From positions 4,851,001 through 4,915,000 of the forward strand of contig NZ_CP088247.1 of NCBI RefSeq assembly GCF_021117295.1: a stretch of DNA of 64,000 nt, in the 5' to 3' direction. This DNA is from Methylorubrum sp. B1-46 (lineage in GTDB: Bacteria; Pseudomonadota; Alphaproteobacteria; Rhizobiales; Beijerinckiaceae). Below the pieces are notes generated by a model. That model had not been told where the DNA came from. It searched no databases and saw only the letters and a list, made by a program, of their open reading frames with translations. Shown piece by piece: positions 29,024-52,122 of the stretch. Position 1 is the first letter of the stretch; the number at the start of each line of letters is the position of its first letter. A program made the translations under genes and the position numbers.

Positions 29024-31633
29024 TCAGGCGGGGACCGCCTCGGTTTCCTGCGGATCGCCCGTCACCACGGTGTTGCGCTCCACCCGCAGCACGGCGTCGA
29101 ACGGCGCCTGCCGGTTCAGGGTGTCCTCGTCGGGGAGACAGACGATGAGCGCCGCGCCCGCGCGCAGCGCCCGCAGGCGCTCGATTCGGGCGGTGATCTC
29201 GTCGGGCTTGCGGTCGTCGAGCGAGAGGCCGACCACGAGGATGTCCGGGCGGCGCACGAGGCAGCGGACGAACTCGATCGCCACCCGCTCGCGCGGGCCG
29301 AGAGCGCCCTCCCCCAGCACCGCACGCTGGCCTTGGCCCGCCACCGCGACGCCGGCCTCGATCCGCGCCGCGAGGCCGAGCCGGTAGACGGTGGGCTCCA
29401 GCCCCTGTTCGGCGAGCACCCGGCGCACCAGGGCGCGCACCCGCCCCTCGGCGCCCGCCTCGCCTTGGGTGATGCGCCCGAACAGCAGGTTCTCCTCCAG
29501 GCTCGCGGCGGCGGTGAGCCGGGAGGGATCGTAGAACTCCACCTTCTCGCGATAGCGCGGCGGCAGCATCGCCGCGAAGGAGTGGCGGGCGGCCACGAGA
29601 CGCTGTTCGAGTGCCGCATCGATCAGGCCGAAGCGGTGGCGCGTCTCGCTGTAGCGGAGCGCCAGCCCGATCAGCCGCTCGCGGTCGCGATGCCCGGCGG
29701 GGCCGCGGCGAAAACCGCGGGCTTCGGGCTGGCGGGCGACCAGATCCTCGAAATAGCCCCGCTCGGCGGCCGGAAACAGCGAGAAGGTCTCGAACAGCGG
29801 GTGATCGTCGGGGAGATCGGAAAAGATCTCGACGGTGGAGCGGGCCACTTGCAGGCCGACATCGACCAGCGTGCGGGTCAGGTCCTCCGCCTCCAGCACC
29901 GCGCGCAGGTAGGGGTGCGCCGCGAGCCGCGCTTGCGAGAAGGCCGGGCTCACCGCCTCGCCGAACAGGATGTTCTCGCCGATATCCGCCTGATGGTTGT
30001 AGCGGGCCGGGTCGAACGGCTCGACGAGGCGGGCCATGCCCTCGCGGGCGAGCGCCTCGCGCACGGCCCACCGAGCGGCGACGACCGCTTCCGCCGTGGC
30101 AGGATCGTCCTCGGGATCGACGGAGGCCTCCAGGCCCCGCTCGTAGACGAAGGCGTCGAGGCCCGTGAGCTTGAGGATGGCGATGCGCTCGGCGAGACCC
30201 GAGGCTTCCCGGTCGCCGCTGCGGGCGCCGTAGAGCAGGTTCTGGCGCAGCGTCCCCTCGATCAGGATCGCCTCGGAGCCGGCCAGCGCCATCCGCCGGG
30301 CGCGCTCGGCGGAATCGAAGGCGCGCAGGTCGATGCCGCCATAGGTGACGGCGCCGGCCGTGGGCTCGATCTGTCCGGCGAGGAGCGCCGCGAGCGCGCG
30401 CGATCCACTGCCACGATGACCGACGATCGCCACATGCGCCGGCATCGGCAGGGCGAGGTCGACCCCGGTCAGCCGCTCGCCGCTGCCGGGGTCGTAGGCG
30501 CCCACACCTTTCGCGACGAGGGCACCGGTCTCGGGAAACGGGGCGGCCGCGCGGGCGCGGTCACCCGGCCGGCGCGGATTGAGCGCGTCCAGGGTCTCGG
30601 CGATGGTGCGAAACAGGGGGGCGACCGTGCGGTACTGGTTCCAGAGCCGCAGGCTGATCGCCACGAGGCTTGCGGCCAGGGCGAAGGCGCCGGCCGCCGC
30701 GACCAGCGCGCCGGGCAGGACGTTGTCGGCCTCGGTCGCCGCCTCGCCCTGCCACAGGGCGGTGGCGATGAGCAGCGCGGGCAGGATCACGACGAGGGCG
30801 AGCGCCGGGGCCCGCGCGTAGGCGAGCTGGGCCTCCGCCCGCACTAGGGCCGAGCGCGCCGCTCGCGCTCGCAGGCCCAGGCGGCGCCGCTCGAACGCCG
30901 CGGCGCCGTGGGCGCGCACCGCCGGCATCCGCCGGATCAGGTCACGCAGGCCCGCTTCCGTGGCGGCGGTGTCGGCCCGGCGCAGGCTGCGGCGGGCGGC
31001 GGTGCGGCTGGCGAGGAGCGCCCGAGCCAATCCGACGGCGGCGAGCAGCAGGGCGATCACCGGCACGAGGCGCGGGGCGGCGAGTTCCGCCATCACCAGG
31101 GCGAGCAGGATCGCAGCCAGCGTCAGGCCGGGCACGACGATGCCGACCGCCGCGAGCGATCCCATCCGCGCGAGCGCCTGGCCGACGAGGCCGGGCAGCG
31201 CCCGCAGGTCCTCGCGGGCGCCCGGCGGCGAGGCGAGGATCGCCTCGGTGGCCCGCGCCCGCAACCGCGCCGTGGCCCGCGCCTGAACGGAGAAGCAGAG
31301 ATAGGCGACCGCCGCGCCGAGGACGGCGAAAAGCAGGGCCGCGGCGGCAAGCGAACTCAGCGCGATCAGCGGCAGTTCGGCCGGCGGCAGGCTCCAGCCC
31401 TCGAACAGGATCGGCGCCTCGCTGCCGTGCTGGCCCGGCAGCGGCAGGGCGATCCGCAGGAAGGGCAGGACGTTCGGGCTGCTGCGGGTGAGCACCGCGA
31501 TCAGGTCGCGCAGGCACAGCAGCACGAACAGCGCCAGCGGTCCGCCCAGGCCCACAGCCAGCCCGAGCGCCGCCGCGTGCCGGCGCGGCGACGAGGCGAG
31601 GGCGAACCGGACGGGGTTACGCTCCATCGGCAT
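29024..31633 (-). CDS. ABC transporter-like membrane protein with a degenerate, expanded ATPase domain
   Basis: 869 residues. Residues 1-330 form an exporter-type transmembrane domain with about six TM helices. The nucleotide-binding part starts near 380. The Walker A equivalent reads GHRGSGSRAL (Ser411 in place of the catalytic Lys) and the Walker B equivalent VVGLSLDD lacks the usual Asp-Glu. An xNLLxG segment normally seen once after the Q-loop appears three times (RQNLLYGA, ENILFGEA and ENLLFGRI). ATP hydrolysis is therefore doubtful. ATG at 31633, or 31627. It lies upstream of the L,D-transpeptidase in the same direction, 101 bp apart. Role and substrate unknown. Confidence 0.72.
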   Translation of the reverse strand: MPMERNPVRFALASSPRRHAAALGLAVGLGGPLALFVLLCLRDLIAVLTRSSPNVLPFLRIALPLPGQHGSEAPILFEGWSLPPAELPLIALSSLAAAALLFAVLGAAVAYLCFSVQARATARLRARATEAILASPPGAREDLRALPGLVGQALARMGSLAAVGIVVPGLTLAAILLALVMAELAAPRLVPVIALLLAAVGLARALLASRTAARRSLRRADTAATEAGLRDLIRRMPAVRAHGAAAFERRRLGLRARAARSALVRAEAQLAYARAPALALVVILPALLIATALWQGEAATEADNVLPGALVAAAGAFALAASLVAISLRLWNQYRTVAPLFRTIAETLDALNPRRPGDRARAAAPFPETGALVAKGVGAYDPGSGERLTGVDLALPMPAHVAIVGHRGSGSRALAALLAGQIEPTAGAVTYGGIDLRAFDSAERARRMALAGSEAILIEGTLRQNLLYGARSGDREASGLAERIAILKLTGLDAFVYERGLEASVDPEDDPATAEAVVAARWAVREALAREGMARLVEPFDPARYNHQADIGENILFGEAVSPAFSQARLAAHPYLRAVLEAEDLTRTLVDVGLQVARSTVEIFSDLPDDHPLFETFSLFPAAERGYFEDLVARQPEARGFRRGPAGHRDRERLIGLALRYSETRHRFGLIDAALEQRLVAARHSFAAMLPPRYREKVEFYDPSRLTAAASLEENLLFGRITQGEAGAEGRVRALVRRVLAEQGLEPTVYRLGLAARIEAGVAVAGQGQRAVLGEGALGPRERVAIEFVRCLVRRPDILVVGLSLDDRKPDEITARIERLRALRAGAALIVCLPDEDTLNRQAPFDAVLRVERNTVVTGDPQETEAVPA

Positions 31634-32081
31634 TCCGGGCACCGGACCGAGGCGGGCCGGGCAGGTTGGCGGGAGAGGAAAGCGGCATCGGGCGGAGGCT
31701 ATCCGGTGACTTGGGCTTCGAGTGAACTGGGCTTTGGCGTGGTGGAGGACTGGTTCGGCGGTCCGACGCGCGAGGAGGCCGTCGCGGACCGTCCTCTTCG
31801 CACGGAAACACCAGGGTGCAAGCCCGGCCAGCCCGCATGCCGCTTTGCAATCCCGCGTGCGCGTTGCTCTTTGGTGCGGGAGAGCACATGGCAGGCAGAG
31901 CATTCCTGCGTCTTCCGCGCGGTGAGCCTGCCTTTCGCCCGGTTCCCAGCCATTCCGTTCGGCGGGGCCACGCCCTCCCCTCTCACCGGACGATGCCGGA
32001 TGCCCGTGCGAGACATCCCAGCGCCTGCTTTCTCCTTGCGGTTCCGGAGCCGTCCGCGCCCGACGGCCGGTCGTTGAGCCG
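31634..32081. other. 448-bp divergent intergenic region
   Basis: It lies between the ABC-like gene (minus) and the ActC-ActD-like gene (plus), so two promoters are expected. I see no clear promoter, repeat or additional gene. Short frames in it lack family features. Confidence 0.4.
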
Positions 32082-34010
32082 ATGAACGAATCCGCGCATC
32101 AGCCTGTCTCCGAGCCGGCTTCCCTCTACGGAATGCCGGTGATCGGGGCCGGCGAGACGGTCTCCTCGATCGGTGCCGCATTGACCGGGGCCGTGCTCGC
32201 GCCCGGCGGCCGCCGCTGGTGGCTTGCCGTCGCCGGCATGCTCGCCCTGATCCTTCTCTGGGCCGGCCTGCGCCCGGCCGTGCCCGCCGCGCTGGCCGCG
32301 GCCGGAGCCGGGTGGTGGATCGGGCTCGCCGCTGGGTGTCTGCTGATCTCGGGGCTGCTGCTGCTCGCGGACGTTGCATGGCGCTGCGGGATCAGCCGGC
32401 TGGCGCAGACGGCCGCCCTGCTCTGCGCCGGTCTCGCCGCCCTCCACCCGGCACCGCTCCACGCGGTCAGTCTCGCGGCCCTGCTCGCGGCGACGGGCGG
32501 TCTCTGGGCGGCCGCCCTCCTGCCGGATCTGGCGGTTCTGCGCGACCGCCTCGCCGCGGAGCCGGATCGCCGCCGTGCCCGCCTCTACCGCGCGTTCGCG
32601 GCCGGCTGGTGCGGCTCGGTGCAGCAATGGCACGCCTGGGAGCGAGCCTGCCGCGGGCTCGCCCTGCTCGCCATCCTCGCGGCGGTGGCGGTGCTGATCG
32701 ACCTTGCGCTGGCCGCAGCCCTTCGCACTGACCGCCACGACACCCTGCTTCCGGTCGCCCTGCTGGTCGAGGCGGTGCTCTCGGGCGCAGGCCTGATCGC
32801 GGCGCTGGCGGTGGCCCTGCGCCGGAGCCTCGGGCTCGACGGCCTCATCACCGGCCGCCACCTCGACATCCTGGGCCGACTGATCCTCGCCTTCGGACTC
32901 GCGGCCCTCTATTGCCACGTCACCGAGAACGTCACCGCGCTCCTCTACGGCGACGCCGCCGAGCGGGCCCGCGTGACCCGCAGGATCCTCGGCGACGAGG
33001 CTCCCGCCTTCTGGACGCTCATGCTCGCCGGCCTTCTTCCCACGCAACTGTTCTGGATCACCCCCGTCCGCCGCAGCGCTGCCGCGCTCGGCCTGATCGG
33101 AGGTCTCGTTGCCGCCGGCCTCGGCGCCGATCACGTGCTCGCCGCGCGGGCGGGCGCGGCAGGGACGGATCTTGCGGGTCTCGCGACCGCCGCCGCCGCC
33201 GCGTTCGGCTCCGCCGGGTTGTTCGTTCTCGGTCTGCTCGTGCTGTTCCGCCTCGTGCCTCCGGTCTCGATCGTCGAGACGCGGCAACTCGCCCTCGCCC
33301 ACAACCCGCAGGCGGCGCTCCGGGCACCGGAGGCGGGACTCGAATCCGGTCGTGACGTTTCGGCGGATCCGAAGCCCCGGCCGGGCCTTCTGGCGGTCTT
33401 CGCCGCCGAGGCCGAACTGGCGGAGGGGGTGCGCGGCCTCTCGGGACCCGACACGCCGTCGCAGCTCGACGCTTACGGTCCCGTGCCGATGCCGGAGGCC
33501 GCGGCCGCCCTCCACGCGCGTGGGCGGCCGCTGAATCGCTTCGCGCTGTTCGGTGCCTTTCTCGGTGTCGTGGCTTTCCTCGCCGCTCGCCTCATCGGCC
33601 TCGCCGATGCGATGCCGCAGGGATTCGCGGACGTGGCGGCGCTCGCCTCACCCGCCACGTGGCCCGGCGCCTTGGGGCTCGCATCGCCGCTCTCGTCGTC
33701 GCTCCTGTGGCCGGTCTCATGGCCGCTTTCCTGGGCCATGGCGGCAGTACCGGCCTTGTCGGCCGGCGCGATGGGCGGTGTCTTCGGTCTCGGGGGGGCG
33801 CTCGTCGCGGCTGTCAGAGCCGGACGGACAGGCCGCAGGCCGCCCTCCGCTCTCAACGGCCGCTTCGTCCTGACGATCGACCCCCCGGTCGAGCCCTCCC
33901 GCGGGGCGTTCAACCCTGCCGCCCTCGTGCGGCGCCTCAACGCCCTGCCGGAGGCGGCTGGACGTCCCCTCGCCCTCTACGGTCCCGCCGCTTTGGGGGC
34001 ACGGCGGTGA
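32082..34010 (+). CDS. ActC-ActD fusion-like membrane protein (alternative complex III family)
   Basis: 642 residues. Residues 20-400 follow the NrfD/ActC pattern: WWIGLAAGCLLISGLLLLAD then VAWRCGISRLAQ, ALLPDLAVLRDRL, AAGWCGSVQQWHAW and ITGRHLDILGRLILAFGLA. The helix that carries the conserved VHSIVSxDFA quinol/proton site in ActC reads VAVLIDLALA, without the His. Residues 440-642 resemble ActD (DUF3341): PGLLAVFAAEAELAEGV, a two-TM hairpin and FVLTIDPP. No heme motif or Fe-S site. The ATG at 32082 is used. The stop overlaps the next gene as GTGA. The resemblance is read by eye. Confidence 0.72.
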   Translation: MNESAHQPVSEPASLYGMPVIGAGETVSSIGAALTGAVLAPGGRRWWLAVAGMLALILLWAGLRPAVPAALAAAGAGWWIGLAAGCLLISGLLLLADVAWRCGISRLAQTAALLCAGLAALHPAPLHAVSLAALLAATGGLWAAALLPDLAVLRDRLAAEPDRRRARLYRAFAAGWCGSVQQWHAWERACRGLALLAILAAVAVLIDLALAAALRTDRHDTLLPVALLVEAVLSGAGLIAALAVALRRSLGLDGLITGRHLDILGRLILAFGLAALYCHVTENVTALLYGDAAERARVTRRILGDEAPAFWTLMLAGLLPTQLFWITPVRRSAAALGLIGGLVAAGLGADHVLAARAGAAGTDLAGLATAAAAAFGSAGLFVLGLLVLFRLVPPVSIVETRQLALAHNPQAALRAPEAGLESGRDVSADPKPRPGLLAVFAAEAELAEGVRGLSGPDTPSQLDAYGPVPMPEAAAALHARGRPLNRFALFGAFLGVVAFLAARLIGLADAMPQGFADVAALASPATWPGALGLASPLSSSLLWPVSWPLSWAMAAVPALSAGAMGGVFGLGGALVAAVRAGRTGRRPPSALNGRFVLTIDPPVEPSRGAFNPAALVRRLNALPEAAGRPLALYGPAALGARR

Positions 34011-35236
34011 GCGCCGAGGAGAAGGGTGCCGCCGCCCGCAAGGCGGCGGGGGCGAAATCCGCCAGCGGCTACTTCCGCGATCCCGCCCGCCGCCCGGCGG
34101 CGGCTTTCGCCATCGGGTTGGGCTGCCTGCTGCTGGCGTTCCACCATGCCGGGCTGCCGCGGCTCGCGCCCTCCTATCTCGCCGCCTGGACCTGCCTCCT
34201 CGCGCTTCCCGCAGGGGCGCTGCCGGTCGCGATCATGATCGAGCGGGCGGATGCGTGGCGCCCGCAGCCCGAGACCGCCCTGCTGGAAACCCTGCGCGGG
34301 TTGCTGGTGCTGATGCCGGTGGCCGCGATCCTGGCCCTGCCGATCCCGCTGGTCGCCGCCCTGCTCTACCCGGCCCCGGAGAGGGCCGGGCCGGACGGGC
34401 CGCTCATCCTGCTCGGCAACGCGCCGCTGTTCCTCGCCGCCCGCCTCAGCCTCTATTTCGCTCTGTGGACCGGGCTTGCCCTGCTCTTCGCCCGCCGCGG
34501 CGGCGAGCCCTGGGCCAAGGCCGGGCGGATCGATGACGGCCGTGCCGCGCTCGGCCTCGGCCTCCACACCGTGGTCGGCACGCTGGCGGCCTTCGATCTC
34601 GTCATGGCCGTCGGCACCGATCCCGGCCTGCGCTTCCACGCCAGCGCCTTCGGCCTTCTGGTGCTCTCGGCCTGGTCGAGCCTCGCGCTGGCTGCGGCGA
34701 TCCTCGTCGCGCCGCCCGATGTCGGGCCGGCGCGGCGCCGGCACGACCGCCTGACCCCGCTCGCCGTGCTGCTCCTCGTCTGGGCCGGCCTGCACGCGGT
34801 GCAGTTCCTGATGCTCGGCGCTGCCGCCGATCCGGAGGCCGCCGCCTGGTACCGGCTGCGGTCGAGCTTCTACGGCCGTGTCCTGGCGCTGTCCGCCGCC
34901 GGCGTCGTGGCGCTCGCCGCCGCCCTGACCCTGCGCCCCGGCGAGAACCGCACGCGGCTCGTGGCGGCGCTCGCCGTCGGTGTCCATCTCGCCGAACTGT
35001 TCTGGTTCGTTACGCCGGCCTTCCGCGGCACCTTCCGCCTCGGCCTCACGGACCTCCTGGCGCTCGCCGGCGTCACTGGGCTGGCGATGGGATTGGCACC
35101 CGCAATCCGCCGCCTGATCCCGGGGCTCGCCGTTACGCCGGCCTGGCCGGGCCGGGAGCGCCTGAAGGGCCGCGTGGGAGCGGCGACAGGGGACACGCGC
35201 CGCAAATCGGTTGTTCGGCCCCCCGAAGCTTCCTAG
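34007..35236 (+). CDS. ActF-like polytopic membrane protein (alternative complex III family)
   Basis: 409 residues with about ten TM helices. The best matches to ActF are LFLAARLSLYFALWTGLALL, TLAAFDLVMAVGTDPGLRFH (ActF: FDWxMSLxPxW) and GVHLAELFWFVTPAFRG. Conserved aromatic and acidic residues of the family are partly replaced. The GTG at 34007 overlaps the upstream stop codon and has GGGGGC upstream, so the pair is translationally coupled and likely forms one membrane complex. No ActA, ActB or ActE gene is adjacent. The C-terminus is basic and soluble. Confidence 0.68.
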   Translation: MSAEEKGAAARKAAGAKSASGYFRDPARRPAAAFAIGLGCLLLAFHHAGLPRLAPSYLAAWTCLLALPAGALPVAIMIERADAWRPQPETALLETLRGLLVLMPVAAILALPIPLVAALLYPAPERAGPDGPLILLGNAPLFLAARLSLYFALWTGLALLFARRGGEPWAKAGRIDDGRAALGLGLHTVVGTLAAFDLVMAVGTDPGLRFHASAFGLLVLSAWSSLALAAAILVAPPDVGPARRRHDRLTPLAVLLLVWAGLHAVQFLMLGAAADPEAAAWYRLRSSFYGRVLALSAAGVVALAAALTLRPGENRTRLVAALAVGVHLAELFWFVTPAFRGTFRLGLTDLLALAGVTGLAMGLAPAIRRLIPGLAVTPAWPGRERLKGRVGAATGDTRRKSVVRPPEAS

Positions 35237-35287: not shown

Positions 35288-36097
35288 ATGTGCGAATTGC
35301 TCGGAATGAGCGCGAATGTGCCCACCGACATCCGGTTCTCCTTCGCGGCGCTGGCCCGGCGCGGCGGCGAGACCGGGCCGCACGCCGACGGATGGGGCAT
35401 CACCTTCTACGAGGGACGCGGCTGCCGCTCCTTCCACGACCCCGAGCCGAGCGCCCGCTCCGAACTCGCCAAGCTGCTGCGCCGCTATCCCATCAAGAGC
35501 CGCATCGTCGTCGCCCATGTCCGCAAGGCCAATCGCGGACGGGTCAGCCTGGAGAACACCCATCCCTTCTCCCGCGAACTGTGGGGCCGGCCCTGGACCT
35601 TCGCCCATAACGGCCAGCTCAAGGGCGTGAAGCGGTTGCCGCTCGGGCGGTTCGAGCCGGTCGGCACCACCGACAGCGAACACGCCTTCTGCTGGATCCT
35701 GTCGCAGCTCCAGGCGCGCTTCCCGAAGCCGCCGCGCACGGCCGCCCTTGAGGCGGCGATCGCCGGCTACGCGCTGACCCTGTCGGAACTCGGCGTGTTC
35801 AACATGCTGCTCACTGACAGCCGGGTGCTCTACGCCCATTGCGGCAAGAGGCTCTGCTACCTGACCCGCCGGGCGCCGTTCGGCACGGCGACGCTGATCG
35901 ACGAGGACTGGCGGGTCGATTTCGCGCAGGAGACGACCGAGACCGATATCGTCACTGTGATCGCCACGCGGGCGCTGACCCGCGACGAGACCTGGACCGA
36001 ATTGGAGCGCGGCGACACGCTGGTCCTCACCGATGGGGCGGTCCGTGTGCTGAAGGGTAAGCGGCGCGCGCAGCCGGAGATGCGCGGCGCCGCCTGA
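35288..36097 (+). CDS. Class II glutamine amidotransferase (YafJ/GlxB-like)
   Basis: 269 residues, a lone Ntn-hydrolase glutaminase domain. Cys2 follows the initiator Met (MCELLGMSAN) and would be the nucleophile. The glutamine-binding motifs GPHADGWGITFYEG, HVRKANRG and FAHNGQL are intact, and the TTDSEHAFCWIL segment is typical. No synthase domain is fused. The acceptor enzyme is not evident; relatives sit alone in many genomes. It begins 51 bases after the ActF-like gene and may be cotranscribed. Confidence 0.88.
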   Translation: MCELLGMSANVPTDIRFSFAALARRGGETGPHADGWGITFYEGRGCRSFHDPEPSARSELAKLLRRYPIKSRIVVAHVRKANRGRVSLENTHPFSRELWGRPWTFAHNGQLKGVKRLPLGRFEPVGTTDSEHAFCWILSQLQARFPKPPRTAALEAAIAGYALTLSELGVFNMLLTDSRVLYAHCGKRLCYLTRRAPFGTATLIDEDWRVDFAQETTETDIVTVIATRALTRDETWTELERGDTLVLTDGAVRVLKGKRRAQPEMRGAA

Positions 36098-36392
36098 CGC
36101 GGAGCGGACTGAAAGCCGCAAGCGATGCTGTCGATCTGCCGCATTCACGCCGCAGGATCGGCCGATCAACTCAAACCGAACCCGATCGAAGCCGTTCGGA
36201 ATAGCGAGTTTGGGTTTTGCCCTTCGCGCCACAGCGGATCGTGTTGTGTGCAAGCGTGGCAGTATTTCGCGTGGCGCGGGTGTGCGGTGCGGGGCCGATG
36301 CGCTACAACTATGTTAAGCGCCTCGCCGGGGCCATCGCCGCGTGCCGGGCCGTCCCGACGTTTGCCGAAATGCCCCGACCGCGAAGTACCCG

Positions 36393-37127
36393 ATGCGCAA
36401 CGAGACCGAAGCCACCCTGGATCGTCCCGCGATGACAGACGGCCGTCCCAAACTCTCCGACTCGATCCGCAGCCATCTCGGCGATCACCTTCGCAGCGTC
36501 TACGACACGCTGGGCGCGGGCGAGGACACGCCGGTCCGCTTCTCCGAGCTGATCGGCAAGCTCGAAGAGGCGCTCAAGGCCCAGGGAGAGCGGATCGATC
36601 CCGATTTCCGCAACGGCCTGCTCGCCGCCGTGCCGTCCTTGCGCGCCTTCGCCCTGTCGCTGACCTCGAACCCGGCCCGCTCCGACGACCTCGTGCAGGA
36701 CACCCTGCTCAAGGGCTGGCAGCACCGTGCCCGCTTCCAGCCGGGCACCAACCTCAATGCGTGGCTGTTCACCATCCTGCGCAACATCTTCTACTCGGAC
36801 CACCGCAAGCGCGTCCGCGAGGTCGAGGACCAGGACGGCTCCTATGCCGCCCGCCTCGCCACCGCGCCGCATCAGGGCGACCGGCTCGACGTCGAGGATC
36901 TGCAGACGGCGCTCGCCAAGCTGCCGCCGGACCAGCGCGAGGCTCTGGTGCTGGTCGGTGCCGAGGGCGTCTCCTACGAGGAGGCCGCGACCATCATGGG
37001 CTGCAAGGTCGGCACGGTGAAGAGCCGCGTCAGCCGCGCCCGCGGGCGTCTCGCCGAGCTTCTCGGCTACGATGAGGAGGATCTCTCCTCCGACCGCTTC
37101 ATCCAGTCGGCGATGCCGGACGCCTGA
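36393..37127 (+). CDS. EcfG-type general stress sigma factor with an N-terminal NepR-like domain
   Basis: 244 residues. Residues 24-60 (SIRSHLGDHLRSVYDTL and TPVRFSELIGKLEEA) match the NepR anti-sigma core, normally a separate protein. Residues 75-145 are sigma region 2 (VPSLRAFALSL, SDDLVQDTLLKGW, NLNAWLFTILRNIFYSDHRK) and 165-220 are region 4 (LPPDQREALVLVGAEG, GCKVGTVKSRVSRARGRL). Free NepR inhibits EcfG until PhyR removes it; here both appear in one chain. ATG at 36393 chosen; GTG 36342 and ATG 36432 are alternatives. The 295 bp upstream show no recognised promoter. No PhyR gene lies in the window. Confidence 0.82.
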   Translation: MRNETEATLDRPAMTDGRPKLSDSIRSHLGDHLRSVYDTLGAGEDTPVRFSELIGKLEEALKAQGERIDPDFRNGLLAAVPSLRAFALSLTSNPARSDDLVQDTLLKGWQHRARFQPGTNLNAWLFTILRNIFYSDHRKRVREVEDQDGSYAARLATAPHQGDRLDVEDLQTALAKLPPDQREALVLVGAEGVSYEEAATIMGCKVGTVKSRVSRARGRLAELLGYDEEDLSSDRFIQSAMPDA

Positions 37128-43860: not shown

Positions 43861-46800
43861 ATGGCCACCGAGAAAAAGCTGAAGGATCCGGCGGAGGCGG
43901 CCCTCTCCGCGATCGAGCAGGCTTTGAATCTGGACATCCCGGCGCCGGGCGAGGCCGCCCGTGTCGAGCCCCGCCTGCCCGATGTCGGCGACGGCGACCT
44001 GCTGGCCGATCCCTTTTCCGAGGCCGGGGGACGCCGCACCCCGAACCTCGACATCGATCCCGCCGCCTCGGAGCTTCCCCTGCCGGAGCGCGGCCGCTCG
44101 CGCCGCGAGGGCGGCCTGCTGCCGCCCGACCGCTCGCTCGTGGCCAACGATGACCGCCAGAACATCGGCATCCTGCAGCAGACCCTCCGGGTGCGGCCCT
44201 CGCGCAAGCCGTACCTCGTCGCGGCGGTCGCCTCCTTCTTCTGGCTCAACGGCCTCGTGGCGCTCGCCTGGAACCAGTCCGGCGGCGACCTGAAGGCGTT
44301 CATCACCGGGCTCACCGCGCTTCAGGCGGCGGTGGTGGCCACCGCCATCGCCGGGCCGATCGTGCTGTTCCTCATCACCGCGATGCTGGCGGTGCGCGCC
44401 CACGAGATGCGCCTCGTCGCCCGCGCCGTCGGCGAGGTGGCGATCCGGCTGGCCGAGCCGGAGAGCTTCTCGACGGATGCCGTGCTGACCATGTCGCAGA
44501 CCGTGCGCCGCGAGGTCGCCGCCGTCGGCGACGGCGTGGAGCGGGCGCTGGCCCGCGCGGGCGAACTCGAAACCCTGGTGCGCGGCGAGATCTCGACCCT
44601 GGAACGGGCCTATTCCGACAACGAGATCCGCATCCGCAGCCTCGTCGACGAGCTGATCGCCCAGCGCGAATCCATCGTCGGCAGCGCCGACCGGGTGCGC
44701 GGCGCGATCACCGGCTCGCACGAGAACCTGTCGAGCGAGCTGGAGGGTGCGGCCGAGCGTATCGTCGCGGCGATCAACGGCGCGGGCGAGCGCGTCACGG
44801 GCGCGCTCGATGCCCGCGGCGAGGCTATCACCACGGCGCTCGGCGAAGTCGGCGAGCGGGTGGTCGGCAACGTCTCGACGCGCGGCGACGACCTGATCCG
44901 CCAGCTCACCGCCACCAGCGAGGGCGTGCGCGGCGGCCTGGAGGAGATCGGCACCAACCTGACCAGCGCGCTGCAGCAGCGCGCCGACGAGGTGACGCAG
45001 GCCTTCGAACGCACCGGCGGGGCGCTGACCCGCACGCTGGCCGACAATGCCGGCGCCGTCGCGCAATCCCTGTCCGAGACCGGCACCGGCCTGATCGAGG
45101 CGCTCGACCGCCAGGGCGGCGCCGTCCGCGAGACCTTCGAACGCTCGACCAAGGGCCTGGAAGAGGCCTTCCTGTCGCGCGGGACCGAGCTGACCGAGCG
45201 CTTCGCCCAGACCGGCGGCGCGATCACCGCGCGCTTTGCCGAGACCGGCGAGGGCCTGAGCCGCCACTTCGCCGCCACCGGCGCGGCGATCTCCGAGGAC
45301 ATCGCCGCCCGCGGCGCCTTGCTTCGCACCGAGATCGAGGCCGCCGGCACCGGCGTGTCCGAGCTGATCGAGGGCCGCGGACGCGACGCGCAGGCCGCGC
45401 TGGCGCTCGCCGCCGGCAGCGTCGCCGACGACTTCTCCGCCCGCATCGACGGCGTGCGCGCGGCCTTCCTGGTCTCCGCCACCCGCGCCGCCGAGACCAT
45501 GGACGGCCGCGGCCTCGAATTGGCCGGCCGCATCGAAGCGTCAGCCACCCGCGTCGAAGACGTCATCGCCGTCCAGGGCGGCGCGCTGGCCTCCAATCTC
45601 GACGCGGCGGGCGAGCGCGTCGTTGGACTGATGAGCGACCGCGCGGCGCAGGCCGCCGCCACCGTCGAGGGGGCGCTTGCCGGGCTCGGCTCGTCCTTCG
45701 CCGCGAATGCCTCCGGCACCGCCGAGCGCCTGCGCGAGACCGTAGCTCGGTTGGGCGACGCCCTCGACGCGCGGGCCACTGCCGCCCATGACGGCATCCG
45801 CCGCAACACCGAGGCCGCGACCGAGAGCGTCGGCGCCAGCGTCGAGACGCTGGAGCGCCGCCTGCGCGAGGCCATCGAGACCGTGGGCGGCCTGCTCGCC
45901 GAGCGCACCGCCGAATCCACCGCGCGGATGCTGCACACCGCCGAGGAGACCTCCGGCGCCGCGCAGGCGCAGGCCGCCGCGGTCGCCGCGCGCTTCGCCG
46001 AGGCTGCCGAGACCCTGCGCCGGGCCGCCGACGAGGCCGCCGCCGCCGTGGAGACCCGCTCAGACGACGTGGTCGGCCGGTTCCAGGCCGCCGCCGAGCG
46101 TGTCGGTGGCGAACTCGGCAGCCGCAGCGAGAGCGCGTCCCAGACCCTCCACGCCGCGATCCAGCGGATGGCCGACGAACTCACGGCCCGCAGCGCCGAG
46201 GCGACCGGGGCGCTGGCGCTCGCCGCCGCCCATGCCGGCGGCGAGATCAGCAATCGCACCGACCAGTCGATGCAGTCGCTTCAGGATCTCCTTCGGCAGG
46301 TGGCCGACGAGATCGCCGTCCGCGGCTCCGAGGCGAGCGTCGCCCTGTCGCTGGCCGCGGCCCAGGCCGGCGGCGACATCGGCAGCCGTGCCGATCAATC
46401 GGCGCAGGGTCTGCGCGCCCTTCTGGGTCAGGTCCGCGAGGAGATTGACGGCCGCAGTGCCGAGGTCACGCAGGCCCTGGCGCGGACCGCCGAGCGCGTC
46501 GGCGGCGAGGTCGGAACGCGGACCGAGGAATCGCTGCGGACCTTACGCGACGCGCTGGACCGGATCGGCGACGAATTGTCGGCCCGCAGCAGCGAGACCA
46601 CCGCAGCTCTTGCGCGCGCGGCCGAGCAGGCCGGCGGTGCGATCGACACCCGTACCGAGGCGTCGCTGCGGACCTTGCGCGAGACTCTGGCCCGGGTCGG
46701 CGACGAGCTGTCGGCCCGCAGCGAAGAGGCCACCGCGGCGCTCGCCAGCGTGGCCGAGCAGGCCGGCGGCACGGTCGGCACCCGCACCGAGGCGTCGCTG

Positions 46801-49800
46801 CGGAGCCTGCGCGACGCCCTGGCCCGGATCGGCGACGAACTCTCCGCCCGCAGCGAAGAGGCCACCGCAGCGCTCGCCCGCGTGGCCGAACAGGCCGGCG
46901 GCGAGGTCGGTGGCCGCACCGAGACGGCGCTGGAGGCCCTGCGCGAGACGCTGCGGCGGCTCGGCGACGAGGTCGCTGCCCGCGGCGCGTCCACGGCGCA
47001 GGCGCTGTCGCGCACGGCCGACGGCGTCGGCTCCGAGCTTGAGGCTCGTCTCGCCGCCCTGGAGGAAGGTTTCGACCGTCACGGCCGCGGCGCCGCCGCG
47101 CTCATCGCCCGCCAGTCCGACGAGGCGCAGGTCCGCCTCGAAGGGGCCGGCCGCGAGGTGGCGCTGGCCATCGCCGGCCACGCGTCGCAGGTCGGCGATG
47201 CGCTCCACCGCAGTCATTCCGCCTTCGTCGAGACTGCCGACGGCCGCGCCCGCGCGGTGGAAGAGGCGCTGGGCAGCCGCCTGGCCGCCCTTCAGGAGAC
47301 CATCGCCCGCGGCGACATCCTCGCCGACCGGATCGCCGGCAACGCGCAGTCGCTCGGCCAGACCCTGGATTCGCGTCTCGCCGAGATCGACCGGATCATC
47401 GCCGTGCAGGGCAACGCGCTTGCCGATTCCCTTGCCGAGCGGGCCCGCCTCGCCAGCGAGACCGTCGAGTCGCGCATCGGTGAGATGGAATCCCTCTCGG
47501 CCAAGCGCGCCGCGGAGATCGGTGAGAGCTTCGCGGCCCTCGTCGGCCATGTCGACACGCGGCTCGGCGCTCGCGCCAACGCCCTCAACGAGACCCTGGT
47601 GCTGCGCACCTCCGAGATCGCCCGCACCCTGGACGAGGGCAACCGCATTCTGGGTGAATCCCTCGACCGGCGCATCGAAGGCTCCGCGCAGGACATCGCC
47701 GACCGCGGCCGCGCCGTGGGCGACGTTCTCGCGGCCCGCGCCGCCGAGATCGCCGAGCGCCTCGAACGCACGACCCAGGATCTCGCCCGCCGCCTCGACG
47801 AGGGCGCCGAGCGCCTCGATACCGGCGTGGTCGCGCGCCTCGACACCCTCAGCGGCACGCTGGAGGAGCGCACCCGCCATCTCGACGAGTCCTTCGGCAT
47901 CCAGGCGCTCGAAGCGGTGCGCCTGATCGAGAGCCGCACCCGCACCATCGACGGCGAGCTGACCGGCCGCATCCGCGACCTCGTCGCCCTGCTGGAGCGC
48001 CGCGGCGGCCTCGCGGTCGAAGCGCTCGGCGGCCATGTCGAGGCACTCGCCCGCCTCTTCGACGAGCGGGCCGAGAGCCTCAACCACCTGTTCGACGAGC
48101 GCGGCGGCGCGCTGGCCGCCGATCTCGACCAGCGTAGCCGCGCGACGGTCGAGGGTCTCGAGGGCCGCCTCTCCGAGATCACCGGGGCCCTGGAACAGGG
48201 CGGCGCCTCGCTCGGCGCCCTGCTCGACCGCCGCGGCACCACCCTGCTCGCCGCCCTGCGCGATCTCGTCGGGCAGGTCGATGACCTCCTCGGCGAGGGC
48301 GCGGGCCGCCTCGGCTCCGCTCTCGACAGTCGTGCGGAGGAGATCCGGACTCTGCTCGACAGCCGCGCCGACGACCTGCGCGGCCTGATGGAAGGCAGCG
48401 CCGGCCGGGTGCGCGGCGAACTCGAAGCCGGTTTCGGTGCCTTCGAGACGGTGCTGGAGGAGCGTCTGCGCACGGTGCGCGACCTGCTCGACGCCCGCAG
48501 CAACGAGATCCGCGACACCTTCGATCACCGCACCGACGACCTGCGCGGCCTGATGGAGGGCGGTGCCGGGCAGGTGCGCGGCGCCTTCGATGCCAACCTC
48601 GGCGCCCTGGAGACGGTGCTGGAGGAGCGTCTGCGCACGGTGCGCGACCTGCTCGATGCCCGCAGCGGCGAGATCCGCGACACCCTCGACAGCCGCACCG
48701 GAGAGCTGCGCGGCCTCGTGGACGGCAGCGCCGGCCGTGTCCGCGGCGAGTTCGAGACGGGGCTCGACGCCCTGCGCGCTGCCCTGGAGGAGCCGGCCCG
48801 CACGGTGCAGGACCTGCTCGACAGCCGCGCCGGCGAGATCCGAGCCATGCTCGACGCCCGCGGCGACGACCTTCGCACGACGCTCGACGAGCGGGCCCGC
48901 ACGGTTCAGGACATCCTCGACCACCGCACGGGCGAGATCCGCGGGCTGCTCGACGGCCATGCCGGCCGCCTCGACGAGGGCTTCCAGGGCCGGATCCTGC
49001 CGCTCCAGGAGGCGCTGACCGAGGGCGCACGCCTGTTCGTCGAGACGCTGGAGGGCGGCATCGGCCGTGCCGCCGGTGAGGTCGATGCCCGCACGCGGGG
49101 CCTCGCCGCCCTGTTCGACGAGCGCCTCGGCGTCCTCGGCGACATCGTCGACGGACGCGGCCAGCAGGTCGCGCAGACCGTCGAGGGGCGGACGCAGGAG
49201 CTGGTCCGCCTGTTCGACGAGTTCCAGGCCCGCCTCGGCGCGCTGGTGGACGAGCGCTCGACCGCGCTGACCGGCCGTCTCGACGGCCAGACCCAGGCGA
49301 TGGCGGCCCTGTTCGACGAGCGGATGCAGAGCCTCGATGGGCTGGTGGAAACCCGCGGCGGCGCCTTCGCGCAGCTCGTGGAGCGCCAGGCCGCGGCTCT
49401 GGCCCAGACCGTCGACAGCCGCAGCGAGGACTTTACCGCCCGCATCGACGCACGCCTGCGCGCCTTCGCCACGGTGGTGGCGAGCCGCGCCAACGCGCTG
49501 GCCGATGCCTTCGACGAGCGCCAGGACGCCTACGCGGCCCTGATCGATGAAGGCATGGCCCGCATGGCCACCGCGCTCGACGAGCGCGCCCGCCAGCACG
49601 TGGCCCAGTTCGAGACGGTCGAGGAGCGCCAGAAGGCCGTCGCCGCCCTGGTCGAGGCCGGCACCGACCGGATCGCGGCGGCGCTCGACGAGCGCGCCCG
49701 GCAGCAGGCGGCGCTGACCGAGGCCTTCGACGGACAGCGGGACGCCTATGCCAGCCTGATCGAGCAGGGCACCGCCCGCATGGTCGCGGCCCTCGAAGAG

Positions 49801-52122
49801 CGGGCGCGCCACCACGCGGCGCAGGCCGAGACGGTGGAAGAGCGGCAGCGGGCCGTCGCAGGGCTCATCGAGGAAGGCACGGCCCGCCTGGTCGCGGCGC
49901 TCGACGAGCGCGCGGAGCGGCAGGCGGCCTTCACCGAGGCCTTCGACGGGCAGCGGGACGCCTATGCGAGCCTGATCGAGCAGGGCACTGCCCGGATGGT
50001 CTCCGCTCTCGAAGAGCGCGCGCGCCGTCACGCGGTGCTGGCCGAGGCGTTCGATCGCCAGAAGGAGGCCTACGCGGCCCTCATCGACGGCGGCACCGCC
50101 CGGATGGTCGCGGCGCTCGACGAGCGGGCCGAGCGGCAGGCGGCGCTGGCGGAGACCCTGGATGAGCGCCAGGGCGCCTATGCCTCGCTGGTGGAGGACG
50201 GCATCATCCGCATGGGCCGGATGCTGGAGGAGCGCGCCCAGCGTCACGCCGCCGAGGTTCAGAGCCGCGTCGCCGCGCTGGCCGAGACGATGGATCAGCG
50301 CAATGCGGCGCTTGCCCGCCTGATCGACGGCCCGGCCGCTTCCCTGGCCGACGCGCTGGCCGAGCGGGAGCAGGCCCTCGACCGGCTCATCGCCGACAAG
50401 GGCACGCCGCTGGTCGAGGCTCTGCGCGAGCGCACCGATGCCATCGTCGTTCGCACCGCGGAGTCGGCCCAGGCTCTGCGCGCGGCCTTGGACGAGGGCG
50501 CGGCGGCATCTGCCGACACCCTCGCCCAGGCGAACGAGCGGGTCCGCCGCGACGTCGCCGGCTTCCTCAGCCGGATCGAGAGCGCCAATGACGGGCTGAA
50601 GCATCTCGTCGGCGGCGCCTCCGAGAACCTCGCGGCGGTCGAGCAGGGGCTCGCGGCCCGTGTCGAGCAGATCCAGTCGGCCCTCGACCGGGTTGCCGCC
50701 GACACGGCGCAGGCTTCCGACCGGGTCTCGACGCAGGTCGTGGCCCTGCGCGAGGCCTCGCAGGGGGCGCTCGCCCAGGCGTCCGACCTCGCCGAGACCC
50801 TCGACGCCCGCGGCCGGGCCCTGGTGGAGCACACCGGCACGCATGTCGGCGCACTCTCGCAGGCCGCCGGCACCCTGGAGGCGGTGGAAGGCCGTCTCGC
50901 CGAGAGCTTGACGAACCGGCAGGCGGTGATCGAGGCGGTGCTGGCCCGTCTCGAGGAGCGCAGCCAAGCCATCGAGGCGCAGACCGGCCGCTTCGGCAGC
51001 GTGGTCGAGGAGACGCTGCGCGCGGCCGAGGCCCGTGCCCGCGAACTCAGCGAGAGCGTGGCCCGCGCGGCCCGCGAAGCCGGCACCGCGGTGGCGGGCG
51101 ACTTCGAGCGCCTGCGCAGCGGCGCCGACGAGGAGAGCGCCCGCACGGCGGGGGCGGTCCGTAGCGCCATCGAGGCGGCCTCCGCCAAGATGATGGAGAG
51201 CTTCGCGGCCGCCTCCGGCCAGTTCGGCGACTCGGTCGCGCGGATGAACGCGATGGCCGCCGAGATCCGCCGCGAGCTCGACGCGACCCGCGCCGACCTG
51301 CAGCGCGGCGTCCTCGACCTGCCGCGCGAGACGCAGGATGCGACGGGCGAGATGCGCCGTGTCGTGGCCGAGCAGATCGACGCGCTGAACGAGCTGGCGG
51401 CGCTCGTCGCCCGCTCCAACCGCTCGGTCGATGTCGCCCAGCCCGCGGCGCAGGCCCGCGGCGCCGAGCAGCGCCGCACCGCCGAGGGAGGCCGCGCCGC
51501 CTCCGCGCCCGCCGCCGCACCGCAGCCGGCGCCTGCGCCGGCCCGCGCTGCGGCGCCGACGGCGGCCCGGCCCCAGGCGGCGGCTCCCGCCCCCGCGCGT
51601 CCGGCGAGCCCGGCCGCCGCTCCGGCCGGAGCCCAGACTCCCGTCCAGGGACGGCCCGGCACCCGCGACAACCGCGGCTGGCTGTCCGATCTCCTGACTC
51701 GCGCCTCGCTCGATGACGACGGCGCCGAGGCGATCCCCGTCCCGGCTACTGCGCCCGAGACGAAGGGATCGGTGGAGCGGATCTCCCTCGACGCGATCTC
51801 GACCGATATCGCCCGCATGGTCGATCATCAGGCCTCGGTCGAGTTCTGGCAGCGCTACCGCCGCGGCGACACGAACCTGTTCGACGGCCGCCTCTACACG
51901 GCGCAGGGCCGCCAGACCTTCGAGCAGATCCAGCGCCGCTACCGGGCGGATGCGGAGTTCCGCCGCACGGTCGACCGCTATGTCGGCGAGTTCGAGCGGC
52001 TGCTCGGCGAGGTGACGAAGAACGACCGCGACACCAAGCGCGCGGACGCCTACCTCACCTCTGAGACGGGCAAGGTCTACACCATGCTCGCCCATGCCAG
52101 CGGCCGGTTCGACGAGGCCTGA
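43861..52122 (+). CDS. Giant polar growth ring protein, GPR/RgsE-like
   Basis: 2753 residues. Residues 1-110 are soluble, followed by two TM helices (about 116-138 and 154-178). About 2350 residues of helix come next, largely built of 11-residue repeats (for example FAQTGGAITAR, FAETGEGLSRH, FAATGAAISED). Within this are three higher-order tandem arrays. A Pro/Ala linker (2532-2600) and a compact C-terminal domain follow (DHQASVEFWQRYRRGDTNLF, YLTSETGKVYTMLAHASGR). Agrobacterium GPR and Sinorhizobium RgsE, apolipoprotein-like organisers of the growth pole, share this plan and C-terminus but are shorter (about 2100 residues). The ATG at 43861 opens MATEKKLKDPAE. Confidence 0.83.
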   Translation: MATEKKLKDPAEAALSAIEQALNLDIPAPGEAARVEPRLPDVGDGDLLADPFSEAGGRRTPNLDIDPAASELPLPERGRSRREGGLLPPDRSLVANDDRQNIGILQQTLRVRPSRKPYLVAAVASFFWLNGLVALAWNQSGGDLKAFITGLTALQAAVVATAIAGPIVLFLITAMLAVRAHEMRLVARAVGEVAIRLAEPESFSTDAVLTMSQTVRREVAAVGDGVERALARAGELETLVRGEISTLERAYSDNEIRIRSLVDELIAQRESIVGSADRVRGAITGSHENLSSELEGAAERIVAAINGAGERVTGALDARGEAITTALGEVGERVVGNVSTRGDDLIRQLTATSEGVRGGLEEIGTNLTSALQQRADEVTQAFERTGGALTRTLADNAGAVAQSLSETGTGLIEALDRQGGAVRETFERSTKGLEEAFLSRGTELTERFAQTGGAITARFAETGEGLSRHFAATGAAISEDIAARGALLRTEIEAAGTGVSELIEGRGRDAQAALALAAGSVADDFSARIDGVRAAFLVSATRAAETMDGRGLELAGRIEASATRVEDVIAVQGGALASNLDAAGERVVGLMSDRAAQAAATVEGALAGLGSSFAANASGTAERLRETVARLGDALDARATAAHDGIRRNTEAATESVGASVETLERRLREAIETVGGLLAERTAESTARMLHTAEETSGAAQAQAAAVAARFAEAAETLRRAADEAAAAVETRSDDVVGRFQAAAERVGGELGSRSESASQTLHAAIQRMADELTARSAEATGALALAAAHAGGEISNRTDQSMQSLQDLLRQVADEIAVRGSEASVALSLAAAQAGGDIGSRADQSAQGLRALLGQVREEIDGRSAEVTQALARTAERVGGEVGTRTEESLRTLRDALDRIGDELSARSSETTAALARAAEQAGGAIDTRTEASLRTLRETLARVGDELSARSEEATAALASVAEQAGGTVGTRTEASLRSLRDALARIGDELSARSEEATAALARVAEQAGGEVGGRTETALEALRETLRRLGDEVAARGASTAQALSRTADGVGSELEARLAALEEGFDRHGRGAAALIARQSDEAQVRLEGAGREVALAIAGHASQVGDALHRSHSAFVETADGRARAVEEALGSRLAALQETIARGDILADRIAGNAQSLGQTLDSRLAEIDRIIAVQGNALADSLAERARLASETVESRIGEMESLSAKRAAEIGESFAALVGHVDTRLGARANALNETLVLRTSEIARTLDEGNRILGESLDRRIEGSAQDIADRGRAVGDVLAARAAEIAERLERTTQDLARRLDEGAERLDTGVVARLDTLSGTLEERTRHLDESFGIQALEAVRLIESRTRTIDGELTGRIRDLVALLERRGGLAVEALGGHVEALARLFDERAESLNHLFDERGGALAADLDQRSRATVEGLEGRLSEITGALEQGGASLGALLDRRGTTLLAALRDLVGQVDDLLGEGAGRLGSALDSRAEEIRTLLDSRADDLRGLMEGSAGRVRGELEAGFGAFETVLEERLRTVRDLLDARSNEIRDTFDHRTDDLRGLMEGGAGQVRGAFDANLGALETVLEERLRTVRDLLDARSGEIRDTLDSRTGELRGLVDGSAGRVRGEFETGLDALRAALEEPARTVQDLLDSRAGEIRAMLDARGDDLRTTLDERARTVQDILDHRTGEIRGLLDGHAGRLDEGFQGRILPLQEALTEGARLFVETLEGGIGRAAGEVDARTRGLAALFDERLGVLGDIVDGRGQQVAQTVEGRTQELVRLFDEFQARLGALVDERSTALTGRLDGQTQAMAALFDERMQSLDGLVETRGGAFAQLVERQAAALAQTVDSRSEDFTARIDARLRAFATVVASRANALADAFDERQDAYAALIDEGMARMATALDERARQHVAQFETVEERQKAVAALVEAGTDRIAAALDERARQQAALTEAFDGQRDAYASLIEQGTARMVAALEERARHHAAQAETVEERQRAVAGLIEEGTARLVAALDERAERQAAFTEAFDGQRDAYASLIEQGTARMVSALEERARRHAVLAEAFDRQKEAYAALIDGGTARMVAALDERAERQAALAETLDERQGAYASLVEDGIIRMGRMLEERAQRHAAEVQSRVAALAETMDQRNAALARLIDGPAASLADALAEREQALDRLIADKGTPLVEALRERTDAIVVRTAESAQALRAALDEGAAASADTLAQANERVRRDVAGFLSRIESANDGLKHLVGGASENLAAVEQGLAARVEQIQSALDRVAADTAQASDRVSTQVVALREASQGALAQASDLAETLDARGRALVEHTGTHVGALSQAAGTLEAVEGRLAESLTNRQAVIEAVLARLEERSQAIEAQTGRFGSVVEETLRAAEARARELSESVARAAREAGTAVAGDFERLRSGADEESARTAGAVRSAIEAASAKMMESFAAASGQFGDSVARMNAMAAEIRRELDATRADLQRGVLDLPRETQDATGEMRRVVAEQIDALNELAALVARSNRSVDVAQPAAQARGAEQRRTAEGGRAASAPAAAPQPAPAPARAAAPTAARPQAAAPAPARPASPAAAPAGAQTPVQGRPGTRDNRGWLSDLLTRASLDDDGAEAIPVPATAPETKGSVERISLDAISTDIARMVDHQASVEFWQRYRRGDTNLFDGRLYTAQGRQTFEQIQRRYRADAEFRRTVDRYVGEFERLLGEVTKNDRDTKRADAYLTSETGKVYTMLAHASGRFDEA
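46123..47046 (+). repeat. Seven tandem 132-bp (44-residue) units inside the GPR-like gene
   Basis: Units start at 46123, 46255, 46387, 46519, 46651, 46783 and 46915. Each encodes a variant of RTEASLRTLRETLARVGDEL followed by SARSEEATAALASVAEQAGG. The period is four 11-residue repeats. The units starting at 46519, 46651 and 46783 are the most alike. Confidence 0.9.
48376..48870 (+). repeat. Three tandem 165-bp (55-residue) units inside the GPR-like gene
   Basis: Units start at 48376, 48541 and 48706 and encode LRGLMEGSAGRVRG, then ETVLEERLRTVRDLLDARS and similar. The period is five 11-residue repeats. The first two share long identical DNA runs, suggesting recent duplication. Confidence 0.9.
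49504..50259 (+). repeat. Seven tandem 108-bp (36-residue) units inside the GPR-like gene
   Basis: Units start at 49504, 49612, 49720, 49828, 49936, 50044 and 50152 and encode variants of EAFDGQRDAYASLIEQGTAR then MVAALEERARHHAAQA. The 36-residue period breaks the 11-residue rhythm used elsewhere. The units starting at 49720 and 49936 are nearly identical, hinting at a 216-bp duplication. Confidence 0.9.

What the first reader, a model, noticed from the sequence alone, without database searches (positions are those of the whole stretch)
32082..35236. ActC-ActD fusion plus ActF-like pair without any redox subunit
Seen: two coupled (GTGA) polytopic membrane genes. The first follows the ActC/NrfD pattern along its whole length (ALLPDLAVLRDRL, AGWCGSVQQWHAW, ITGRHLDILGRL) and then continues into an ActD/DUF3341-like domain. 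The second has ActF-like segments. Known: alternative complex III uses ActC and ActF with ActA, ActB and ActE (heme c, Fe-S) to oxidise quinol. Here those subunits are absent nearby, and the ActC helix that should read VHSIVSxDFA reads VAVLIDLALA. Inference: the membrane sector was kept for another purpose, such as quinone sensing, ion transfer or scaffolding of another enzyme.
Basis: partly seen in the sequence, partly recalled or inferred. Interest (0 to 1): 0.85.

Follow-up and report, generated by a model that had tools for sequence, protein, structure and literature searches.

The report
Respiratory complex stripped of redox parts
In a group of methanol-using bacteria a respiratory enzyme operon has lost its electron-carrying genes and its quinol pocket, yet two membrane genes are still kept intact by natural selection, which suggests they have been turned to a different job.

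Summary
Two GTGA-coupled genes encode an ActC-ActD fusion (32082-34010) and an ActF (34007-35236) of alternative complex III (ACIII). Their predicted folds match ACIII chains first in the PDB. Of 19 fetched loci with the complete operon (actA-actB-actCD-actE-actF plus cytochrome oxidase genes), 15 sit at this same place. In 21 of 111 genus genomes, this one included, only actCD and actF remain. So this is an operon remnant. Nine of ten mapped ActC quinol-pocket residues are replaced or deleted in the window. Selection keeps both genes: median dN/dS 0.27 (actCD) and 0.14 (actF). Constraint has moved: relaxed in the ActC quinol bundle (0.09 to 0.22), extreme in predicted cytoplasmic loops of ActF (0.30 to 0.02). 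Two metagenomic operons that appear complete already share those loops, so the cytoplasmic role probably predates the loss. Best reading: a non-redox ActC/ActF dimer with a conserved cytoplasmic docking face, ligand unknown. The genome has a second, complete ACIII, but 9 of the 21 remnant genomes show no ActB.

The parts
32082..34010 (+). actCD remnant gene: ActC (10 predicted TM helices) fused to ActD; 642 aa
   Evidence: ORF; phmmer to ACIII ActC 5e-30; ActD Pfam 23 bits; AlphaFold2 pLDDT 77, Foldseek ranks 1-4 are ACIII ActC chains, TM-score by target length 0.74-0.76
32445..32468 (+). site of the lost quinol-pocket segment: short TM3-TM4 junction (residues 122-129) where complete relatives carry His139, Ser164 and Asp169
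   Evidence: alignment and residue table; predicted helices 101-120 and 128-157
33384..34007 (+). ActD-like domain (residues 435-642): strand-helix-strand, two TM helices, strand-helix-strand
   Evidence: Pfam, below cut-off, secondary structure of the model, alignment with stand-alone ActD
34007..35236 (+). actF remnant gene, 409 aa, GTG start overlapping the actCD stop
   Evidence: AlphaFold2 pLDDT 84.8, Foldseek ranks 1-5 are ACIII ActF chains
34241..34297 (+). ActF predicted cytoplasmic loop 1 (residues 79-97, ERADAWRPQPETALLETLR)
   Evidence: mean pairwise identity 0.99 in 20 remnant loci, 0.43 in 17 complete ones
34493..34531 (+). ActF predicted cytoplasmic loop 2 (residues 163-175)
   Evidence: identity 0.96 against 0.20
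34709..34753 (+). ActF predicted cytoplasmic loop 3 (residues 235-249)
   Evidence: identity 0.89 against 0.39
34925..34951 (+). ActF predicted cytoplasmic loop 4 (residues 307-315)
   Evidence: identity 0.86 against 0.61
31634..32081 (.). intergenic region upstream of actCD; in syntenic complete relatives actA and actB lie between the ABC gene and actCD
   Evidence: synteny, gap sizes; no sigma-70-type promoter match
29024..31633 (-). conserved upstream neighbour: divergent 869-aa protein with an ABC ATPase domain (synteny marker)
   Evidence: Pfam ABC_tran 27.8 bits
35288..36097 (+). conserved downstream neighbour: class-II glutamine amidotransferase (synteny marker)
   Evidence: ORF; Pfam GATase_4 2.3e-99 for 35306-36097
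36342..37127 (+). next downstream neighbour: ECF sigma factor with a weak NepR match at its N-terminal side (synteny marker)
   Evidence: Pfam

Best explanation
The pair is what remains of an ACIII-caa3 operon after actA, actB, actE and the cox genes were lost (shown by synteny and trees). The two proteins keep the ActC and ActF folds (predicted) and probably still form the ActC/ActF heterodimer (inferred). They very probably cannot oxidise quinol: the pocket is gone, and no redox partner is encoded beside them or, in 9 of 21 genomes, found anywhere. Selection maintains both genes. It now bears hardest on the predicted cytoplasmic loops of ActF, holds the second helix bundle of ActC, and is relaxed at the quinol bundle (shown by sequence statistics). 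The most likely mechanism is a non-redox membrane module whose charged cytoplasmic ActF face docks a cytoplasmic protein or anionic ligand. ActF acquired that role while the complex was still complete, and it is the reason the dimer outlived the enzyme (inferred).
For: Same locus, complete operon in relatives: 15 of 19 fetched complete loci share both downstream neighbours and 12 of 19 also the upstream ABC gene; all 21 remnant genomes share the downstream pair. Census of 111 genus genomes: 81 with fused ActCD, 60 of them with its ActB (64% identity or more), 21 without. The remnant-type ActF occurs in exactly those 21 (588-652 bits against at most 325 for the others). Three loci from two other genera carry the complete operon with unfused actC and actD, so complete is taken as ancestral. 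The 20 remnant rows form one clade (100/100; 99/98). The pocket is lost while R114, R119 and D191 are kept in 20 of 20. dN/dS is at most 0.48 in all 15 remnant pairs; ActF loops 0.021 against 0.302 in complete pairs, rest of ActF 0.198 against 0.216; ActC TM2-5 0.22 against 0.09, TM6-9 0.17 against 0.23. In remnant rows the ActC helices of the published ActC-ActF interface (TM2, 5, 6, 7) are better kept than the other helices, 0.71 against 0.57; in complete rows 0.76 against 0.71.
Against: No partner or ligand was identified; no expression, proteomic or knockout data were found. Loop topology rests on a model plus the published ACIII orientation. I set the segment boundaries after seeing alignments, so the p-values are nominal; the dN/dS pairs (15 remnant, 8 complete) were picked by me and share species. 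Synonymous divergence is also lower in the ActF loops (median 0.19 against 0.30), so part of the conservation may not act on the protein. R114, R119 and D191 belong to the published cytoplasmic proton half-channel, so an ion-path role is not excluded. actCD evolves faster in the remnant clade than in complete operons (0.27 against 0.19). The single loss is weak on ActF alone (71/33). The genome searches scored a capped number of candidates per genome (7 to 17), so absence of ActB is strong but not absolute.
Confidence: 0.55

Rival explanations
1. The remnant pair conducts ions or protons: the half-channels of ActC and ActF were freed from redox coupling and now act as a leak or antiport path.
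For: R114, R119 and D191 of the ActC cytoplasmic half-channel are kept in 20 of 20 remnant loci, R196 and D197 in 17 of 20. In ActF, R308 is kept in 20 of 20, H355 in 15 of 20, and the D358 position is Glu in 16 of 20. The ActC second bundle TM6-9 is at least as constrained as in complete operons (0.17 against 0.23).
Against: ActF Glu301 is Ala in 20 of 20 (already so in P0019 and P0020), the Tyr284 position is G, A or V in 20 of 20, ActC Ser245 is kept in 1 of 20, and ActC Glu122 is Gln in 16 of 20. The strongest constraint lies in loops, not in the membrane path.
Confidence: 0.2
2. Decaying relic: the two genes are on their way out and do nothing.
For: actCD dN/dS is higher than in complete operons (median 0.27 against 0.19), the pocket segment was deleted, and 22 of 111 genus genomes have no ActC match.
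Against: No internal stop in actCD or actF of the 20 remnant loci read. dN/dS of actF is 0.09-0.30 and of actCD 0.18-0.48 in 15 pairs. Four ActF loops are nearly invariant. Both genes stay together at one place in 21 of 21 genomes.
Confidence: 0.08
3. The pair is an alternative or regulatory membrane sector for the second, complete ACIII in the same genome.
For: A complete second ACIII-caa3 operon is present here, and 12 of 21 remnant genomes have an ActB of that type (43-46% identity to the fused-operon ActB; one of the 12 with a stop inside).
Against: In 9 of 21 remnant genomes (98-100% complete) the ActB query finds nothing or only short matches near 1e-6 over an Fe-S region. ActC periplasmic loops and pocket have decayed.
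Confidence: 0.07
4. Quinone sensor: the pair still binds quinone without oxidising it.
For: The ActC fold is retained in the model.
Against: Of ten mapped pocket residues only Pro136 is kept in the window protein; W82, H139 and D253 are kept in 0 of 20 remnant loci.
Confidence: 0.05

Closest known systems
Alternative complex III (ActABCDEF), e.g. Rhodothermus marinus 6F0K and Chloroflexus aurantiacus 8K9E
   Same: ActC, ActD and ActF folds and topology; descent from such an operon at the same locus
   Different: No ActA, ActB or ActE beside it, quinol pocket deleted, ActD fused to ActC, ActF cytoplasmic loops rebuilt and nearly invariant
Fused-type ACIII-caa3 operon of other Methylobacterium (L042-L055, L089-L092, L094)
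   Same: ActCD fusion, homologous ActF; same locus in 15 of 19
   Different: Redox genes present and ActC pocket mostly intact (W82, H139, S164, D169 in 17 of 17)
NrfD/PsrC-like quinone-binding membrane subunits
   Same: Two four-helix bundles, no cofactors of their own (PMC8076601, passages)
   Different: Those work with a redox partner and, ActF excepted, a quinone site; here neither is found

Membership tests
Alternative complex III (functional complex) | ActB Fe-S subunit encoded with the complex | tested here: not met
   Not called at the locus in the 21 remnant genomes; not found in the whole genome in 9 of 21
Alternative complex III (functional complex) | Heme subunits ActA (5 CXXCH) and ActE (1 CXXCH) | tested here: not met
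   No gene at the locus and no debris in 20 loci; both present with 5 and 1 motifs in the four complete loci checked and in the second ACIII
Alternative complex III (functional complex) | Quinol pocket in ActC (His139, Asp169, Asp253 and hydrophobic wall; PMC5928083) | tested here: not met
   H139 0 of 20, D169 4 of 20, D253 0 of 20 remnant loci; none of the three in the window protein
Alternative complex III (functional complex) | Coupling residues ActC Ser245, ActF Tyr284, ActD Glu122 (PMC5928083) | tested here: not met
   Ser245 1 of 20, Tyr284 0 of 20, Glu122(D) 0 of 20. But complete relatives also differ: Ser245 14 of 17, Tyr284 6 of 17 (otherwise Phe), Glu122(D) 0 of 17
ActC / NrfD-like protein family | 10-TM ActC fold | tested here: met
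   phmmer 5e-30; Foldseek ranks 1-4, TM-score by target length 0.74-0.76. The Pfam NrfD model itself does not match
ActF protein family | ActF fold and homology | tested here: met
   Foldseek ranks 1-5; continuous with complete-operon ActF in trees
ActD protein family | Pfam PF11821 gathering score | tested here: inconclusive
   23 bits against cut-off 25.7; secondary structure agrees; many close relatives carry a precomputed PF11821 label
ActC-ActF heterodimer | Physical association of the two proteins | not testable with these tools
   Only indirect: helices at the published interface are better kept, 0.71 against 0.57

The most novel reading that the evidence does not exclude
A respiratory quinol-oxidising complex has been converted into a non-redox membrane device. 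ActF gained a cytoplasmic docking or signalling face while the enzyme was still whole. When the electron-transfer arm and the quinol site were later discarded, selection kept the ActC/ActF dimer for that second function alone.
Probability: 0.45. Interest if true: 0.8.

Novelty: new variant of a known kind. Interest (0 to 1): 0.62.

Why it matters
The NrfD-like membrane subunits of ACIII are discussed as quinone sites and putative proton pumps inside redox enzymes (PMC5928083, PMC8076601, passages). Here two of them survive without the neighbouring electron carriers and without the quinol pocket. That is a natural separation of function: whatever this pair does, it seems to do without redox chemistry. 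Relatives of the pair are listed for named cultured species such as Methylorubrum extorquens, aminovorans and thiocyanatum, so a deletion is practical. Complete operons close by on the tree give a before-and-after comparison, and they also show that some ACIII lack residues thought central to coupling (ActD Glu122, ActC Asp253).

Tried and rejected
Pfam, NCBIfam and PDB sequence searches did not place ActF; the fold search did. I first took the ActF loop motif as an invention of the remnant clade; metagenomic ActB hits with matching contig lengths suggest it predates the loss, and I dropped that reading. I first counted one loss as certain; a quick ActF tree with more metagenomic rows placed P0099/P0020 beside the haplocladii and gnaphalii remnants, a careful ActF tree gave one remnant clade at only 71/33, and ActCD plus ActF gave 99/98, where shared decay of ActCD may draw rows together. 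One loss is likelier; two are not excluded. A search for actA, actB, actE or cox debris in 20 remnant loci gave no match better than E 0.036. A sigma-70 promoter scan gave nothing. Three ActF matches were marked with one TGA; in the two that I traced (L040, L041) and in L085 it is the gene's own terminal stop. Literature searches listed no paper whose title or abstract start describes this remnant; PMC4013037 mentions the ACIII-cox cluster, and I saw passages of it only.

Rows dropped before counts: remnant set 20 of 21 (G134 left out because actCD is split over two contig ends); complete set 17 of 19 fetched loci (L052 and L054 left out for broken gene calls). In the complete set actA was not called in L091, and in L052 actE was not called. 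The other 41 of 60 genomes with a fused-type ActB were not fetched as long loci. In L080 and L084 my gene caller missed actCD; I read the open frame at the matched place and trimmed it at a start codon of my choice. Complete loci were chosen from the best matches, not at random.
Full report
WHAT IS THERE. Two genes on the + strand overlap at GTGA: 32082-34010 (642 aa) and 34007-35236 (409 aa). Both score well under a codon model that I trained on nine genes of this genome. The first matches ActC chains of solved alternative complex III (ACIII) structures by sequence (6f0k_C, E 5e-30), and its last third is a sub-threshold ActD match. The second has no significant sequence match in Pfam, NCBIfam or the PDB. 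AlphaFold2 models (ActCD pLDDT 77, pTM 0.82; ActF pLDDT 85, pTM 0.86) return ACIII ActC chains at Foldseek ranks 1-4 and ACIII ActF chains at ranks 1-5. The ActCD model has ten ActC helices followed by two strand-helix-strand units around two helices, the ActD pattern described in PMC5928083 (passages).

WHERE IT COMES FROM. I called genes on loci from relatives and clustered them. Nineteen fetched loci carry the operon actA, actB, actCD (fused), actE, actF, a small gene, cox2, cox1, cox3, cox4; my caller missed actA in one (L091) and actE in one (L052), and L054 has shortened actB and actCD calls. In 15 of these 19 the same glutamine amidotransferase and ECF sigma factor as in the window lie near; in 12 of 19 the same ABC-type gene is there too. 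In the 21 remnant genomes only actCD and actF stand at that place, all 21 with the same two downstream neighbours and 20 with the ABC gene (in L080 and L084 actCD was found by the search and missed by my caller). Across 111 genomes of the genus, 81 have the fused ActCD, 60 of these have its ActB (64% identity or more), and the 21 without it are exactly the 21 with the remnant-type ActF. Three more genomes (G035, G080, G092) have an ActF match but no fused ActCD match; in the two loci read, no act gene lies beside it. Three loci from two other genera carry the complete operon with separate actC and actD, so I take the complete state as ancestral and the fusion as the next step. In 20 remnant loci no debris of the lost genes matched better than E 0.036.

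HOW MANY LOSSES. In a careful tree of ActCD plus ActF the 20 remnant rows used form one clade at 100/100, with the 17 complete rows outside it. With the metagenomic P0099/P0020 pair added, that pair is their sister and the clade holds at 99/98. ActF alone gives 71/33, and a quick ActF tree with more metagenomic rows mixes them. One loss is likelier, two are possible.

THE QUINOL SITE. Residue numbers are those of Sousa et al. 2018 (PMC5928083, passages) and of a review of the NrfD family (PMC8076601, passages). In 17 complete loci W82, H139, S164 and D169 are kept in 17 of 17. In 20 remnant loci they are kept in 0, 0, 3 and 4. In the window protein the segment holding H139 and S164 is deleted and D169 aligns with His; of ten mapped pocket residues only Pro136 is kept. 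Methylobacterium haplocladii (L086) looks like an intermediate: the segment is full length, S164 and D169 are there, but H139 is Pro and W82 is Ser.

SELECTION AND WHERE IT ACTS. Pairwise dN/dS (Nei-Gojobori counting in my own script; pairs chosen by me, not independent): remnant actF median 0.14 (15 pairs), remnant actCD 0.27 (15), complete actF 0.19 (8), complete actCD 0.19 (8); four neighbouring genes 0.09-0.18. By segment (medians), ActC TM2-5, the quinol bundle, went from 0.09 in complete to 0.22 in remnant pairs; TM6-9 from 0.23 to 0.17; ActD from 0.21 to 0.31. In ActF four loops (56 residues) that the model and the published ACIII topology place in the cytoplasm went from 0.302 to 0.021 (summed dN over summed dS), while the rest of residues 29-370 stayed at 0.216 and 0.198. 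Mean identity in these loops is 0.94 among 20 remnant rows and 0.40 among 17 complete rows, whereas periplasmic loops are 0.57 and 0.63 (nominal rank test 9e-16 for the difference). Synonymous divergence is somewhat lower there too (median 0.19 against 0.30 in the same remnant pairs), which I cannot explain.

TIMING. P0099, an ActCD with W82, H139, S164 and D169 intact, is listed with 44,691 as well. I infer from the equal lengths that these are complete operons; I could not read the contigs. If so, the new ActF loops, and also the change of ActF Glu301 to Ala, arose before the redox genes were lost, whereas the pocket decayed afterwards.

HOW IT MOST LIKELY WORKS. Shown by computation: descent, absence of redox subunits and pocket, purifying selection, shift of constraint. 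Predicted: the folds. Inferred: ActC and ActF still pair, since the helices named as their interface in PMC5928083 (TM2, 5, 6, 7) are better kept than the others in remnant rows (0.71 against 0.57; in complete rows 0.76 against 0.71); the charged cytoplasmic ActF face binds a protein or anionic ligand; this role is why the pair survived. An ion path is the main rival because R114, R119 and D191 are invariant, but ActF Glu301, the aromatic residue at Tyr284 and ActC Ser245 are not kept. A role inside the second ACIII of this genome fails for the 9 of 21 remnant genomes in which no ActB was found. The genome also has a cytochrome b of the bc1 kind by Pfam, so quinol oxidation need not depend on this locus.

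NOVELTY. It descends from a known complex, so the kind is known. An ACIII membrane module without any redox part does not appear in the listings of my searches, whose library holds open-licence papers only; I read passages of three papers.

Noticed in passing
L002 3027-14156 (minus strand; G000:C1:1119026-1130155): Complete second ACIII-caa3 operon with separate actC and actD in the window's genome, 44% identical in ActB to the fused-type operon.
   Followed up: partly
L042-L055, L089-L092, L094, L119-L121: Complete fused-type ACIII lack ActC Asp253 and His247 (17 of 17) and ActD Glu122 (17 of 17, also 3 of 3 unfused outgroups), residues proposed as central to quinol oxidation and coupling.
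   Followed up: partly
L117 9933-10991, L118 9977-11035: Lone ActF genes without other act genes beside them in genomes that also have the second ActC type; dN/dS between the two is 0.20, so ActF seems to have been kept alone in another lineage.
   Followed up: partly
window 36342-37127 +: ECF sigma factor whose N-terminal side weakly matches the anti-sigma factor NepR (E 1.2e-4, below the cut-off), a possible NepR-EcfG fusion.
   Followed up: no
window 29024-31633 -: 869-aa protein with one partial ABC ATPase match (27.8 bits), beside the act locus in many of the genus loci read.
   Followed up: no
window 34241-34951, ActF loops: Synonymous divergence is lower in the four conserved ActF loops than in the rest of the gene (median 0.19 against 0.30 in 15 pairs); cause unknown.
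   Followed up: no
window 43861-52122 +: Single 2753-aa gene call, not examined.
   Followed up: no
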